Assembly: GCA_021806885.1 (NCBI GenBank)
Contig: JAKAPT010000003.1
Location: forward strand, 1 to 50,440
DNA length: 50,440 nucleotides
Source of the DNA: a bacterium
GTDB lineage: Bacteria > SZUA-79 > Acidulodesulfobacterales > Acidulodesulfobacteraceae
Reading direction: 5' to 3'
Position numbers and translations under genes: made by a program. Below, in pieces: positions 2,679 through 15,204 of this stretch. Within the stretch, counting starts at the first letter, position 1, and every line of letters begins with the position of its first letter. The notes beneath the pieces are model-generated. The model searched no databases, was not told the DNA's origin, and was given only the letters and a program-made list of their open reading frames with translations.

Positions 2679-2966
2679 AGAGGGTGATTTTTAAAATTCC
2701 ACAAAGTTATCAACAATTGTTGGTAACTCGAATTTAGTAATAATTACAATAGGTTATCTTTAATAATTTATTAAATGAGGACTAATTAAGTTATAAATCC
2801 CGAATATTGATTTCAATAAGGTATAAAAGTTTAACATATCAAATTTTAAAATAAATTTCAATAATTTAAAATTAATTTTTTAAATTTAAATTTCTTGACA
2901 TATTTACGGTTATTTGGTAAAAATAAGGTTTAAAATAAATTTTAATAATTGGATTTTGGAGACGAT
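2679..2966. other. dnaA-rpmH divergent intergenic region, candidate oriC
   Basis: This 288-bp, extremely AT-rich gap separates dnaA from rpmH. Close to dnaA it contains a near-perfect palindrome: TTATCAACA at 2707-2715 on the plus strand and TTACCAACA read on the minus strand at 2718-2726, two bases apart. Both resemble DnaA boxes. The remaining sequence to about 2890 is A/T tracts without a gene. The dnaA-rpmH gap is a common origin site in bacteria, so oriC is the natural interpretation, shared with the dnaA-dnaN gap. Confidence 0.55.
2895..2924 (+). promoter_or_regulatory. Predicted promoter of the rpmH-rnpA-yidD-yidC-mnmE operon
   Basis: TTGACA at 2895-2900 is a perfect -35 hexamer. A 17-bp spacer leads to TAAAAA(T) at 2918-2924 as the -10. 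The inferred start near 2930 gives a leader of about 36 nt with GGAG at 2958-2961 before the rpmH ATG. Confidence 0.6.
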
Positions 2967-3116
2967 ATGAAAAGGACATTTCAGCCAAGCAATTTAAAAA
3001 GAAAACGTACCCATGGTTTTTTAAGCCGCATGAGCACGAAAAACGGCCGGCTTGTTCTATCTAGGCGCAGGAGGAAAGGCAGGAAGGTGCTTGTGCCTGT
3101 AATAAGCGCAAAATAA
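2967..3116 (+). CDS. rpmH: 50S ribosomal protein L34
   Basis: This 49-residue, very basic protein starts [18 protein letters not shown], the canonical L34 N-terminus. It continues with the arginine-rich RRRRKGRK segment and ends VPVISAK. L34 is a small protein of the large ribosomal subunit. The gene heads an operon with rnpA only 2 nt downstream, the conserved rpmH-rnpA pairing, and is divergent from dnaA. GGAG is spaced 5 nt before the ATG. Confidence 0.97.
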
Positions 3117-13215: not shown

Positions 13216-14235
13216 ATGGATGAATATAGCAACAGGGATAAAAGCCGGGAGTTTTACGTTCAATGGCATTTTATAGATTCGTGCAATTTAAGGTGCCTGC
13301 ATTGCTACCAGAATCAATATAATCATAAGGACATAGACCTTGGCGCCCTGAAATCCATATTTTCAAGGCTTGACGAGGCGATGGCAAAATGGAAAATGAA
13401 ATGCTTTGTTTCCCTTACGGGGGGAGAACCTTTTCTTAAACCATCGGGACTTTTCTACCTTATGGATTTGATCGAGAGGTCGGATAATTTTAAAAAAATC
13501 GCCATTCTTACAAACGGCACGCTTATAGACAAAGGCCTTATCGAAAGAATAAAAGGCTTTGAAAAACTCTCTGAGGTCCAGGTTTCACTGGACGGGCACG
13601 ACGAGGAATCGCACGATGCCGTAAGGGGCGAAGGTACATTCCTGAAATCCATAAACGGGATAAAGGCGCTAAAGAACGCTGGAATAAAAACAACTGTAAT
13701 GTTTACCCTCCACAGGAAAAACGCCCACTCCGCCGTTAAAATGCCCGCCCTTGCAGGTTCTTTGAATATTGACGCCCTTACCGTTGAAAGAATGACAACC
13801 ATGAGCGATGCCGAGACGAAAGAATTTTTCATTGAGCCTTCGGGTGTAAAGGATGTTTATACCGGTGTTTTCAACGAGGCGAAGAAGGAGCTTGCAGGAA
13901 AAAATACGCGGCTTTCCACTTCAAGGCCTCTCTGGAACCTCGTTGATAATGACAGCGGGGGGTATTGCCCCATAGGGCTTTCCTCGATTTGCGTCCTTCA
14001 TGACGGAACGCTGCTCCCATGCAGGAGGCTTAATATTCCTTTAGGGAATATCCTTACTGACGGCCTCTTTAAGGTCTGGTACAACTCCGATGTCCTGTGG
14101 TCTTTAAGAAAGAAGGGGAAAAATAACGAATGCCTTGAATGTTCCCATCTTGACCGGTGCGGGGGCTGCAAGGCTATCACATATTATCATTCCGGCGGGG
14201 ATCTCGACGCAAAGGATCCGCAATGCTGGAAATGA
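13216..14235 (+). CDS. Radical SAM/SPASM peptide maturase
   Basis: This 339-residue enzyme has the radical SAM cluster motif Cys23-x3-Cys27-x2-Cys30 (CNLRCLHC) and the GGEP motif (TGGEPFL). Its C-terminal SPASM region holds at least seven cysteines, in YCPIG, SICVLHDGTLLPCRR, ECLEC, RCGGCK and the final PQCW. Such proteins bind auxiliary Fe-S clusters and modify ribosomally made peptides. Directly downstream lie a PqqD-type recognition protein and a short peptide gene, the classic maturase setting. Heme-d1 or AhbC/D-type enzymes share this architecture but would not be expected beside a PqqD and a precursor. The exact modification cannot be read from sequence. Confidence 0.88.
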   Translation: MDEYSNRDKSREFYVQWHFIDSCNLRCLHCYQNQYNHKDIDLGALKSIFSRLDEAMAKWKMKCFVSLTGGEPFLKPSGLFYLMDLIERSDNFKKIAILTNGTLIDKGLIERIKGFEKLSEVQVSLDGHDEESHDAVRGEGTFLKSINGIKALKNAGIKTTVMFTLHRKNAHSAVKMPALAGSLNIDALTVERMTTMSDAETKEFFIEPSGVKDVYTGVFNEAKKELAGKNTRLSTSRPLWNLVDNDSGGYCPIGLSSICVLHDGTLLPCRRLNIPLGNILTDGLFKVWYNSDVLWSLRKKGKNNECLECSHLDRCGGCKAITYYHSGGDLDAKDPQCWK

Positions 14236-14260: not shown

Positions 14261-14530
14261 TTGAAGGTGGGCGTCTTAAGGCTTTCCGAGGATTTAACCC
14301 TTAAATCTTTTGAGGAGAAATATCTTCTTTTTAACAATAAAGACGGAAGCGTTTTTGAATTAAACGGGATGTCTTACAATATACTTTCCCTCTGCGACGG
14401 TAAAAACACAGAGGATGACATAATAAGAAAGGTAATGGAAGGCTTCGATGCTTCAAGGGACGAGGTCCAGAAAGACCTTGGCGGGCTTATCGAAGCGCTT
14501 CTTAAAAAAAATTTCATAACCGTTTCATAA
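14261..14530 (+). CDS. PqqD-family peptide recognition protein (RRE)
   Basis: This 89-residue protein has the PqqD fold pattern: an N-terminal strand region (YLLFNNKDGSVFELNG), a helix (SYNILSLCDG) and the winged helix segment (TEDDIIRKV to LLKKNFI). In RiPP systems such domains bind the leader of the precursor and present it to the radical SAM enzyme. It begins with TTG at 14261 after a GAGGA at 14254-14258, 25 nt after the maturase stop. The peptide gene follows 32 nt later. The domain is usual in size, not truncated or fused. Confidence 0.85.
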   Translation: MKVGVLRLSEDLTLKSFEEKYLLFNNKDGSVFELNGMSYNILSLCDGKNTEDDIIRKVMEGFDASRDEVQKDLGGLIEALLKKNFITVS

Positions 14531-14562
14531 AAACATATAAGGATAAAAGGAGGTGAAAGGTC

Positions 14563-14682
14563 GTGAAAAAAATCTACGAAGCGCCAATGTTTTACGAGAT
14601 TCCAGCCGAGGAGTTTTATGCTATAATTCTTGACGGCTACGGGATGAAAGACTCATGCTATGCCTGAAAGGAGTGCAAATAG
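14563..14682 (+). CDS. Radical-SAM-modified precursor peptide, putative selenopeptide (UGA read as Sec)
   Basis: A GTG start at 14563 lies 9 nt after a strong AGGAGG (14548-14553). The frame gives 34 residues up to a TGA at 14665-14667. The leader-like N-terminus starts MKKIYEAP and is rich in acidic and aromatic residues. The C-terminus contains LDGYG and SCYA. If the TGA encodes selenocysteine the frame runs five codons further to a TAG at 14680-14682, giving 39 residues ending U-K-E-C-K and a C32-x-x-U35-x-x-C38 motif. A SECIS-like hairpin follows the TGA at the right distance. Position after a SPASM maturase and PqqD marks it as the substrate. Without readthrough the gene ends at 14667. 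Haft's 'selenobiotic' radical SAM target peptides are the closest described concept I recall, but membership was not tested. Confidence 0.75.
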
Positions 14683-14695
14683 CGTAGGTTACGCT
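14681..14695 (+). promoter_or_regulatory. SECIS-like hairpin downstream of the in-frame UGA
   Basis: AGCGTA (14681-14686), loop GGT, TACGCT (14690-14695) form a perfect 6-bp stem. The apical loop begins with GG, and 19 nt separate the UGA from the loop. Bacterial SECIS elements need a short stem with a G in the first loop positions about 16-37 nt after the UGA; E. coli fdhF has 18 nt and a GGUC loop. UGAA of the stop region can also pair with UUCA at 14696-14699, placing the UGA at the helix base. Confidence 0.6.
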
Positions 14696-14790: not shown

Positions 14791-15204
14791 ATGAAAAAAG
14801 AATCGTTCGCGATATTCTTTCTAAGGTTTGTGCTTTTTCTAACATTTTTTTACCATGGAACCGGAATATTGTTTGACTGGTTTAACGGGCCGGGTCCGGC
14901 AGGGTTCGCGGGCTACATGCACTTTCCGCTTTTAATTGCGGTTCTTGTAGGCATAGCGGAAACAGCAGGCTCCCTTGCGATGATAAGCGGCATCCTGACA
15001 AGGATAGGAGCCCTTTGTATAATGATAGTAATGCTCGGGGCAATATTCATTCTGCACCTTCCCCACGGTTTCAACATAATGGCCGGCGGCTATGAATACG
15101 CCCTTACGGAGTTTACCATTGCCCTTTCGGTATTTATAATGGGGCCCGGGGAATTTACGCTTACGGGACTGTTTGCTAAAAATGCGCCCTACATCTTGAG
15201 ATAG
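14791..15204 (+). CDS. DoxX-family membrane protein
   Basis: This 137-residue protein has four hydrophobic segments (about 8-27, 45-66, 70-92 and 105-125) and the DoxX-type pattern LRFVLFLTFFYHGTG near the start, with PLLIAVLVGIAETAG and the HLPHGFN region. DoxX proteins are small inner-membrane proteins tied to thiol or sulfur redox in several bacteria. AAAGGA precedes the ATG. It is the last gene before the terminator at 15239, so it probably belongs to the radical SAM peptide operon. Whether it acts on the peptide is inference. Confidence 0.85.
   Translation: MKKESFAIFFLRFVLFLTFFYHGTGILFDWFNGPGPAGFAGYMHFPLLIAVLVGIAETAGSLAMISGILTRIGALCIMIVMLGAIFILHLPHGFNIMAGGYEYALTEFTIALSVFIMGPGEFTLTGLFAKNAPYILR

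What the first reader, a model, noticed from the sequence alone, without database searches (positions are those of the whole stretch)
14563..14695. Putative selenocysteine-containing RiPP precursor with SECIS-like hairpin
Seen: the peptide frame ends at a UGA after 34 codons. Nineteen nt later a perfect 6-bp hairpin presents a GGU loop, close to the E. coli fdhF SECIS geometry (18 nt, GGUC loop). The frame continues K-E-C-K and then UAG. Reading UGA as Sec creates C32-x-x-U35-x-x-C38. Known: bacterial SECIS elements need a G at the start of the apical loop 16-37 nt after UGA, and selenopeptide targets of radical SAM enzymes have been predicted by comparative genomics (the 'selenobiotic' families, from memory). 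Inference: a radical-SAM/SPASM enzyme modifies a selenocysteine-bearing peptide.
Basis: partly seen in the sequence, partly recalled or inferred. Interest (0 to 1): 0.93.

Follow-up and report, generated by a model that had tools for sequence, protein, structure and literature searches.

The report
Selenocysteine-bearing peptide made for chemical modification
A tiny bacterial gene appears to be read through its 'stop' signal to insert selenium into a 39-residue peptide that a neighbouring radical enzyme probably modifies; it looks like a second, previously undescribed family of such selenium peptides.

Summary
The frame GTG14563–TGA14665–KECK–TAG14682 and its 6-bp hairpin (14681–14695) are as described. 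The genome (99.6% complete) has selA, selB, selD (itself with an in-frame UGA) and tRNA-Sec. A precursor profile finds 36 copies in 27 of 30 genomes of the same family and none in 356 others. 25 have exactly one TGA, at residue 35, followed by K-[E/S]-C-K where read. Ten have Cys codons there instead, and none has TAA or TAG there. The hairpin is conserved with compensatory changes in the TGA copies and mostly decayed in the Cys copies. A radical SAM/SPASM gene and a PqqD-like leader-binding gene precede the peptide in most relatives.

So this is a new selenoprotein family: a RiPP-type precursor with core C-x-x-U-x-x-C. It works like the known selenobacteriocin pair SbtA/SbtM but is not a member. 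TIGR04081 gives no hit, the enzyme scores 130 bits against a 350-bit cut-off, and motif and architecture differ. The chemistry done at U35, and the peptide's job, are inferred only. I rate it a new variant of a known kind.

The parts
13216..14235 (+). Radical SAM/SPASM peptide maturase, 339 aa; CxxxCxxC (C23, C27, C30) plus seven SPASM cysteines (C251, C269, C306, C309, C315, C318, C337). Its own stop is TGA.
   Evidence: Pfam Radical_SAM and SPASM above cut-off; all ten Cys invariant in 24 aligned enzymes; AlphaFold model pLDDT 87.8; best PDB fold matches are RiPP maturases SkfB, CteB-type and SuiB
14261..14530 (+). PqqD-like peptide chaperone (RiPP recognition element), 89 aa
   Evidence: Pfam PqqD 51 bits, cut-off 23.4; lies between rSAM and precursor in most relatives
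14548..14553 (+). Shine-Dalgarno AGGAGG of the precursor
   Evidence: sequence
14563..14682 (+). Selenopeptide precursor: 39 aa, (V/M)KKIYEAPMFYEIPAEEFYAIILDGYGMKDSCYAUKECK, stop TAG
   Evidence: frame; alignment A1; profile E = 4.5e-21
14575..14592 (+). Leader motif Y5-x-x-P8-x-F10, the YxxPx(L/F/I) pattern of RRE-bound leaders (binding inferred)
   Evidence: Y5 and P8 invariant in A1; motif in lasso-peptide leaders (PMC10368454)
14605..14616 (+). Invariant leader block A15-E16-E17-F18
14656..14676 (+). Core motif C32-x-x-U35-x-x-C38
   Evidence: C32, residue 35 and C38 invariant as Cys/Sec in A1
14665..14667 (+). In-frame UGA read as selenocysteine (residue 35)
   Evidence: TGA or a Cys codon at this site in homologues, never TAA/TAG
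14681..14695 (+). Bacterial SECIS-type stem-loop, apical loop G 19 nt after the UGA; overlaps the TAG stop
   Evidence: fold; conserved stem with compensatory changes in 15 distinct sequences; weaker in Cys homologues

Best explanation
The locus is a three-gene RiPP-type cassette: radical SAM/SPASM maturase, PqqD-like recognition protein, and a 39-aa precursor. The precursor's UGA codon 35 is decoded as selenocysteine by SelB/tRNA-Sec, directed by the stem-loop that starts 13 nt after the UGA. Shown here by comparative genomics: Sec/Cys interchange, coding conservation after the UGA, a conserved SECIS-type hairpin, a complete Sec machinery, and a conserved gene order. Inferred: the PqqD-like protein binds the YxxPx(F/L/I) leader and hands the C-terminal core S-C-x-x-U-K-x-C-K to the radical SAM enzyme, which acts at or beside U35, most likely forming a seleno/thio-carbon bond (selenoether crosslink, or a selenoazole-type ring as in SbtM). 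The peptide would then serve as a small redox or metal-binding selenopeptide. No exporter or protease is part of the conserved cassette, so an intracellular role is at least as likely as secretion.
For: Sec machinery; SelD itself reads ...AHGUGCK. The precursor profile finds 36 copies in 27/30 family genomes: 25 with exactly one TGA, 10 with Cys codons, 1 with TGA plus TAA. Exact Cys counterparts CYSCKSCK and CYSCKGCK occur at the same column. Downstream codons vary mostly synonymously: AAA/AAG, GAA/GAG, TCT/TCC/TCA, TGC/TGT. SECIS stem: 15 distinct forms, 5 pairs kept in 14-15 of 15, with C-G/U-A and A-U/U-A/C-G swaps; loop G 19-26 nt after the UGA. Hairpin energy: Sec mean -7.8, Cys mean -3.0 kcal/mol, p = 0.006. 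rSAM-PqqD-precursor order conserved in changing surroundings. Sec copies occur in 21/23 genomes with this rSAM and 2/7 without it (Fisher p = 0.003, not corrected for kinship). The rSAM fold is closest to RiPP maturases.
Against: No expression, peptide or selenium measurement exists. G003 and G013 keep a Sec precursor with no matching rSAM found, and in G004, G006, G009, G010 and G018 the rSAM lies on another contig than the Sec precursor, so adjacency is not absolute. The codon test used a pattern that already required K..CK. In a few Cys copies the hairpin persists, so it is not a perfect marker. The product chemistry has no direct evidence.
Confidence: 0.85

Rival explanations
1. Sec is inserted, and the enzyme makes a thio(seleno)oxazole at U35 exactly as SbtM does on SbtA.
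For: SbtM is among the two best NCBIfam matches to the enzyme, 130.6 bits against 135 for the ACGX enzyme. SbtM acts on both Cys and Sec peptides (PMC11002830), which would fit the natural Sec/Cys interchange seen here. Both enzymes share the QWH...CxxxCxxC block.
Against: Far below the SbtM cut-off (350). SbtM-type enzymes form a separate, long-branched clade and carry a fused N-terminal part. SbtA has SGUG (PMC13188914; L116), whereas here U is followed by K and framed by two conserved cysteines.
Confidence: 0.25
2. Sec is inserted, but the peptide is mainly a metal or Fe-S ligand: CxxUxxC mimics the CxxCxxC of ferredoxins, and the rSAM association is secondary.
For: C32, U/C35 and C38 are spaced exactly as in CxxCxxC cluster motifs and are invariant. 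The sister Cys-only peptides have CxxCxxCxxC. Some genomes keep the precursor without the rSAM.
Against: Tight rSAM-PqqD-precursor order and the leader motif YxxPx(F/L/I) are hallmarks of RiPP maturation. Sec copies track the rSAM gene.
Confidence: 0.15
3. UGA is an ordinary stop; the product is a 34-residue peptide and the downstream similarity is an RNA element or chance.
For: UGA is used as a normal stop elsewhere, including at the end of the adjacent rSAM gene. A stem-loop near a stop could be a regulatory or terminator element.
Against: Ten homologues have no stop at this position, and those read encode Cys there and continue through K-x-C-K or R-A-C-F in one open frame. No homologue uses TAA or TAG there. 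Variation after the UGA follows codons. The hairpin is weaker in the Cys copies. The full Sec machinery is present.
Confidence: 0.03

Closest known systems
Selenobacteriocin / SbtA precursor (TIGR04081) with SbtM maturase (TIGR04082), thio(seleno)oxazole RiPP (Lewis et al. 2021, as cited in PMC13188914 and PMC11002830)
   Same: A short ribosomal peptide with UGA-encoded Sec, a SECIS just after the UGA, and a radical SAM/SPASM maturase next door.
   Different: Precursor unrelated in sequence: SGUG after an AQ-type site in L116, versus CxxUxxC at the C-terminus of a 39-mer here. SbtM is about 516 aa with a fused N-terminal region; here the rSAM is 339 aa with a separate PqqD-like protein. Neither family model reaches its cut-off.
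ACGX-system radical SAM/SPASM protein (TIGR04340)
   Same: Best-scoring NCBIfam model for the enzyme (135 bits) and for its Cys-only sister enzymes (189-198 bits).
   Different: Cut-off is 400 bits, not met; no ACGX repeats in the precursor; no Sec known to me in that system.
Sactipeptide/ranthipeptide maturases SkfB, CteB-type, SuiB
   Same: Same fold, auxiliary-cluster SPASM domain, peptide substrates. PapB can form a selenoether on a Sec-substituted peptide in vitro (PMC10470005).
   Different: 15-21% identity; leader-binding domain fused there (from memory), separate here; natural substrates carry Cys, not Sec.
Cys-only sister system (L025, L030: precursors YEKPIL...CRQCSGCHGCR and YKKPEI...CRQCSSCHACR)
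   Same: 35-38% identical rSAM, the same YxxPx leader motif, C-terminal cysteines every third residue.
   Different: Four cysteines and no UGA or SECIS hairpin; no NCBIfam name reached for the enzyme.

Membership tests
Bacterial selenoprotein (Sec-decoded gene) | selA, selB, selC, selD in the genome | tested here: met
   selA over cut-off in 28 of 30 family genomes
Bacterial selenoprotein (Sec-decoded gene) | in-frame UGA that aligns with Cys in homologues | tested here: met
   25 copies with one TGA, 10 without a stop and with Cys at residue 35 where read
Bacterial selenoprotein (Sec-decoded gene) | SECIS-type stem-loop just after the UGA with G in the apical loop | tested here: met
   15 distinct conserved forms with compensatory changes, loop G 19-26 nt after the UGA
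Bacterial selenoprotein (Sec-decoded gene) | selenium in the protein | not testable with these tools
   needs mass spectrometry or 75Se labelling
RiPP precursor with rSAM/SPASM maturase and RRE | adjacent rSAM/SPASM gene and PqqD-like RRE gene | tested here: met
RiPP precursor with rSAM/SPASM maturase and RRE | leader plus core layout in the peptide | tested here: met
   YxxPx(F/L/I) and AEEF blocks, variable middle, invariant C-terminal SCxx[U/C]xxC
RiPP precursor with rSAM/SPASM maturase and RRE | post-translational modification of the core | not testable with these tools
   needs reconstitution
SbtA / selenobacteriocin (TIGR04081) | match to the family model | tested here: not met
   no hit in the window peptide or relatives
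SbtA / selenobacteriocin (TIGR04081) | SGUG motif | tested here: not met
   motif here is CYAUKEC
SbtM (TIGR04082) | score over the curated cut-off of 350 bits | tested here: not met
   130.6 bits, aligned to model positions 195-515 only
ACGX radical SAM (TIGR04340) | score over the curated cut-off of 400 bits | tested here: not met
   135 bits
The 119 prokaryotic selenoprotein families listed in PMC13188914 | a listed family that is a CxxUxxC RiPP-type precursor | tested here: not met
   Most of Table 1 read; the only Sec RiPP seen is TIGR04081; no NCBIfam or Pfam hit for the peptides

The most novel reading that the evidence does not exclude
A radical SAM maturase evolved with Sec as its preferred natural substrate atom, forming selenium-carbon bonds (for example selenoether crosslinks across C-x-x-U-x-x-C) to make a ribosomal selenopeptide used as a redox or metal-handling cofactor in acidophilic sulfate reducers. 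That would be a natural selenoether RiPP class, and one in which Sec-to-Cys reversion has occurred.
Probability: 0.35. Interest if true: 0.88.

Novelty: new variant of a known kind. Interest (0 to 1): 0.72.

Why it matters
Only one family of selenocysteine-containing RiPP precursor appears in the parts I read of the 2026 inventory of prokaryotic selenoproteins. This would be a second, independent one, conserved across a whole bacterial family, with natural Sec and Cys versions that allow a direct test of what selenium adds. Ordinary gene callers stop at residue 34 and lose half of the core motif, so such genes are missed. It also gives a compact system (three small genes, a 39-mer) for studying radical chemistry on selenium.

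Tried and rejected
Rfam on 13-16 kb: only sub-threshold chance matches, no SECIS family hit. TIGR04081 in 99 genomes: nothing (no control rang, so weak on its own). The weak precursor hit in G037 (L092) lies in a stretch that looks like a sugar-nucleotide dehydratase gene: rejected as chance. The DoxX gene at 14791-15204 (weak HvfX match) was considered as a partner because HvfX-type proteins go with copper-binding RiPPs; it is not next to the cassette in most relatives, so rejected. Papers: the primary SbtM paper and the 2025 selenoprotein neighbourhood paper are not held. Regulatory-hairpin and plain-stop readings were tested and rejected.

Full report
WHAT WAS CLAIMED AND WHAT IS THERE. The window is one whole contig (G000:C67) of a 1.38-Mb genome, 99.56% complete. 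At 14563 a GTG start with a strong AGGAGG signal opens a frame of 34 codons that ends at TGA 14665-14667, continues AAG GAG TGC AAA and stops at TAG 14680-14682. A perfect 6-bp stem with a GGU loop spans 14681-14695, with the loop G 19 nt after the UGA. The hairpin alone is weak evidence: its folding z-score is about -1, and 3 of 1359 TGA trinucleotides in the window have an equally good one.

MACHINERY. The genome has selA (561 bits), selB (320 bits), selD (356 bits) and a tRNA-Sec with anticodon UCA (71 bits). selD itself is a selenoprotein here: its only internal stop is a TGA at the usual site...SAHG-U-GCK. selA is over the cut-off in 28 of 30 genomes of the family and matched below the cut-off in another, incomplete one.

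HOMOLOGUES. The rSAM gene led to relatives; the 39-aa peptides could be read off nearby. Aligned (A1), they have almost one length (39 or 40), and M1, K2, Y5, P8, A15-E16-E17-F18, S31, C32, residue 35 and C38 are invariant, with U counted as Cys. A profile of A1 run over 386 genomes finds 36 copies at E of 0.001 or better in 27 of the 30 family genomes and none in 356 others. 25 copies have exactly one TGA inside, one has a TGA and a TAA (probably decayed), and ten have no stop; where these were read the codon is TGC or TGT. Examples are SCYS-TGA-KECK, SCYS-TGA-KSCK, SCYS-TGC-KSCK, SCYS-TGT-KGCK and SCHT-TGC-RACF. TAA or TAG is never seen at residue 35. After the UGA the codons differ almost only in third positions (AAA/AAG, GAA/GAG, TCT/TCC/TCA, TGC/TGT); only residue 37 changes amino acid. 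The pattern used for that count required K, C and K, so it is support rather than an independent test; the profile search is the more independent one.

SECIS. Twenty-three Sec copies have the stem-loop, in 15 distinct forms. Five base pairs are kept in 14 or 15 of 15 forms, with two-sided changes at three of them (C-G to U-A at two; A-U to U-A or C-G at one). The apical sequence is A-G-[G/U]-U in all. The loop G lies 19 to 26 nt after the UGA. Best local hairpin energy averages -7.8 kcal/mol in Sec copies and -3.0 in Cys copies (one-sided Mann-Whitney p = 0.006). Two or three Cys copies keep a hairpin, which fits recent Sec-to-Cys change. In several genomes the final stop is also TGA, but it sits against or inside the stem and can hardly be read in the same way (sequence; inference).

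CASSETTE. The order rSAM, PqqD-like, precursor holds in most relatives while the flanking genes differ. In several genomes the cassette or the precursor alone lies about 11 kb from selA, probably its old place in the chromosome. In G004, G006, G009, G010 and G018 the rSAM lies on another contig than the Sec precursor. Sec copies are present in 21 of 23 genomes with this rSAM and in 2 of 7 without; three of those seven have Cys copies only (Fisher p = 0.003; 0.014 among the more complete genomes; not corrected for kinship). This suggests that the enzyme and the Sec form belong together.

ENZYME. 339 aa, radical SAM plus SPASM, with three cluster cysteines and seven SPASM cysteines, all invariant in 24 aligned enzymes, so probably two auxiliary clusters (inference from the SPASM family). 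The AlphaFold model has pLDDT 87.8 and is closest to SkfB, CteB-type sactipeptide/ranthipeptide enzymes, SuiB, anSME and PqqE. NCBIfam gives no name over its cut-off: ACGX enzyme 135 of 400 bits, SbtM 130.6 of 350.

HOW IT PROBABLY WORKS. Shown by comparison: Sec coding and the conserved cassette. Inferred: the PqqD-like protein binds the YxxPx(F/L/I) leader, a motif known from RRE-bound lasso leaders (PMC10368454), and the rSAM works on C32-x-x-U35-x-x-C38. Two chemistries have precedent: thio(seleno)oxazole by SbtM (PMC11002830) and selenoether by PapB on an artificial Sec peptide (PMC10470005). I favour a selenium-carbon crosslink slightly over the oxazole, because U35 is followed by Lys rather than Gly and sits between two conserved cysteines, but this is a judgement. 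The mature peptide is likely a redox or metal-binding selenopeptide; no exporter or protease is conserved beside it.

AGAINST WHAT IS KNOWN. The 2026 inventory of 119 prokaryotic selenoprotein families (PMC13188914) lists one selenium RiPP, 'selenobacteriocin' TIGR04081, motif SGUG. I recovered a true SbtM locus (L116) whose peptide reads ...PALAAQSGUGGTAG: no similarity to ours. A tree separates three SbtM enzymes from ours on a long branch (midpoint root, so only the separation is meant). A sister system (L025, L030) has a 35-38% identical enzyme and Cys-only peptides YEKPIL...CRQCSGCHGCR. This is therefore a new family of the known kind 'Sec-bearing RiPP precursor'.

ORGANISM. The record titles of relatives (metagenome bins, two labelled Deltaproteobacteria from sediment) and two relatives that match published bins in size and contig number (G001 with AP2, 2.2 Mb in 5; G003 with AP3, 1.9 Mb in 7; PMC6776010) point to Candidatus Acidulodesulfobacterales from acid mine drainage. 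This is inference.

VERDICT. Observation confirmed. Sec coding about 0.95; substrate of the adjacent rSAM about 0.85; exact chemistry and biological role open.

Noticed in passing
L052 (G000:C4:21422-22351, - strand): The genome's SelD is itself a selenoprotein: in-frame TGA at SAHG-U-GCK.
   Followed up: yes
L004 about 2860-3085; L028 about 2033: A small FmdB-like zinc-ribbon protein ends GGFG-TGA-GT-TAA with a GGGCAGGTTGC stem-loop right after (L004); L028 shows a similar TGA and stem-loop. Probably another selenoprotein near the rSAM gene in these two genomes (FmdB-family selenoproteins are listed in PMC13188914).
   Followed up: partly
L025:2779-2916 and L030 (- strand, within about 1059-1244): Cys-only sister RiPP system: 35-38% identical rSAM with downstream peptides ending CRQCSGCHGCR / CRQCSSCHACR, unnamed in NCBIfam.
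   Followed up: partly
window 14791-15204: DoxX-family membrane protein with a weak match (34.9 bits, cut-off 80) to HvfX, a partner of copper-binding RiPPs; not conserved beside the cassette.
   Followed up: yes
L102 10859-11209, L101 7869-8351: A DsrE-family protein (L101, PF02635 just under its cut-off) lies beside the rSAM gene in L101, and its relatives occur near Cys-type precursors in L102 and L104; an unnamed DsrE-looking protein (no Pfam hit) follows the precursor in L102. A possible link to sulfur or selenium relay.
   Followed up: partly
L116 (reverse-complemented locus, from about 1093): A genuine SbtA/SbtM locus: precursor ...ALAAQSGUGGTAGAGSAPK... beside a 530-aa SbtM over the TIGR04082 cut-off.
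   Followed up: yes
L014:971-1087: Cys-type paralogue SCHTCRACF keeps a perfect SECIS-like hairpin (TGCGCAGTTTGCGCA) after its stop: a likely fossil of a former Sec codon.
   Followed up: partly
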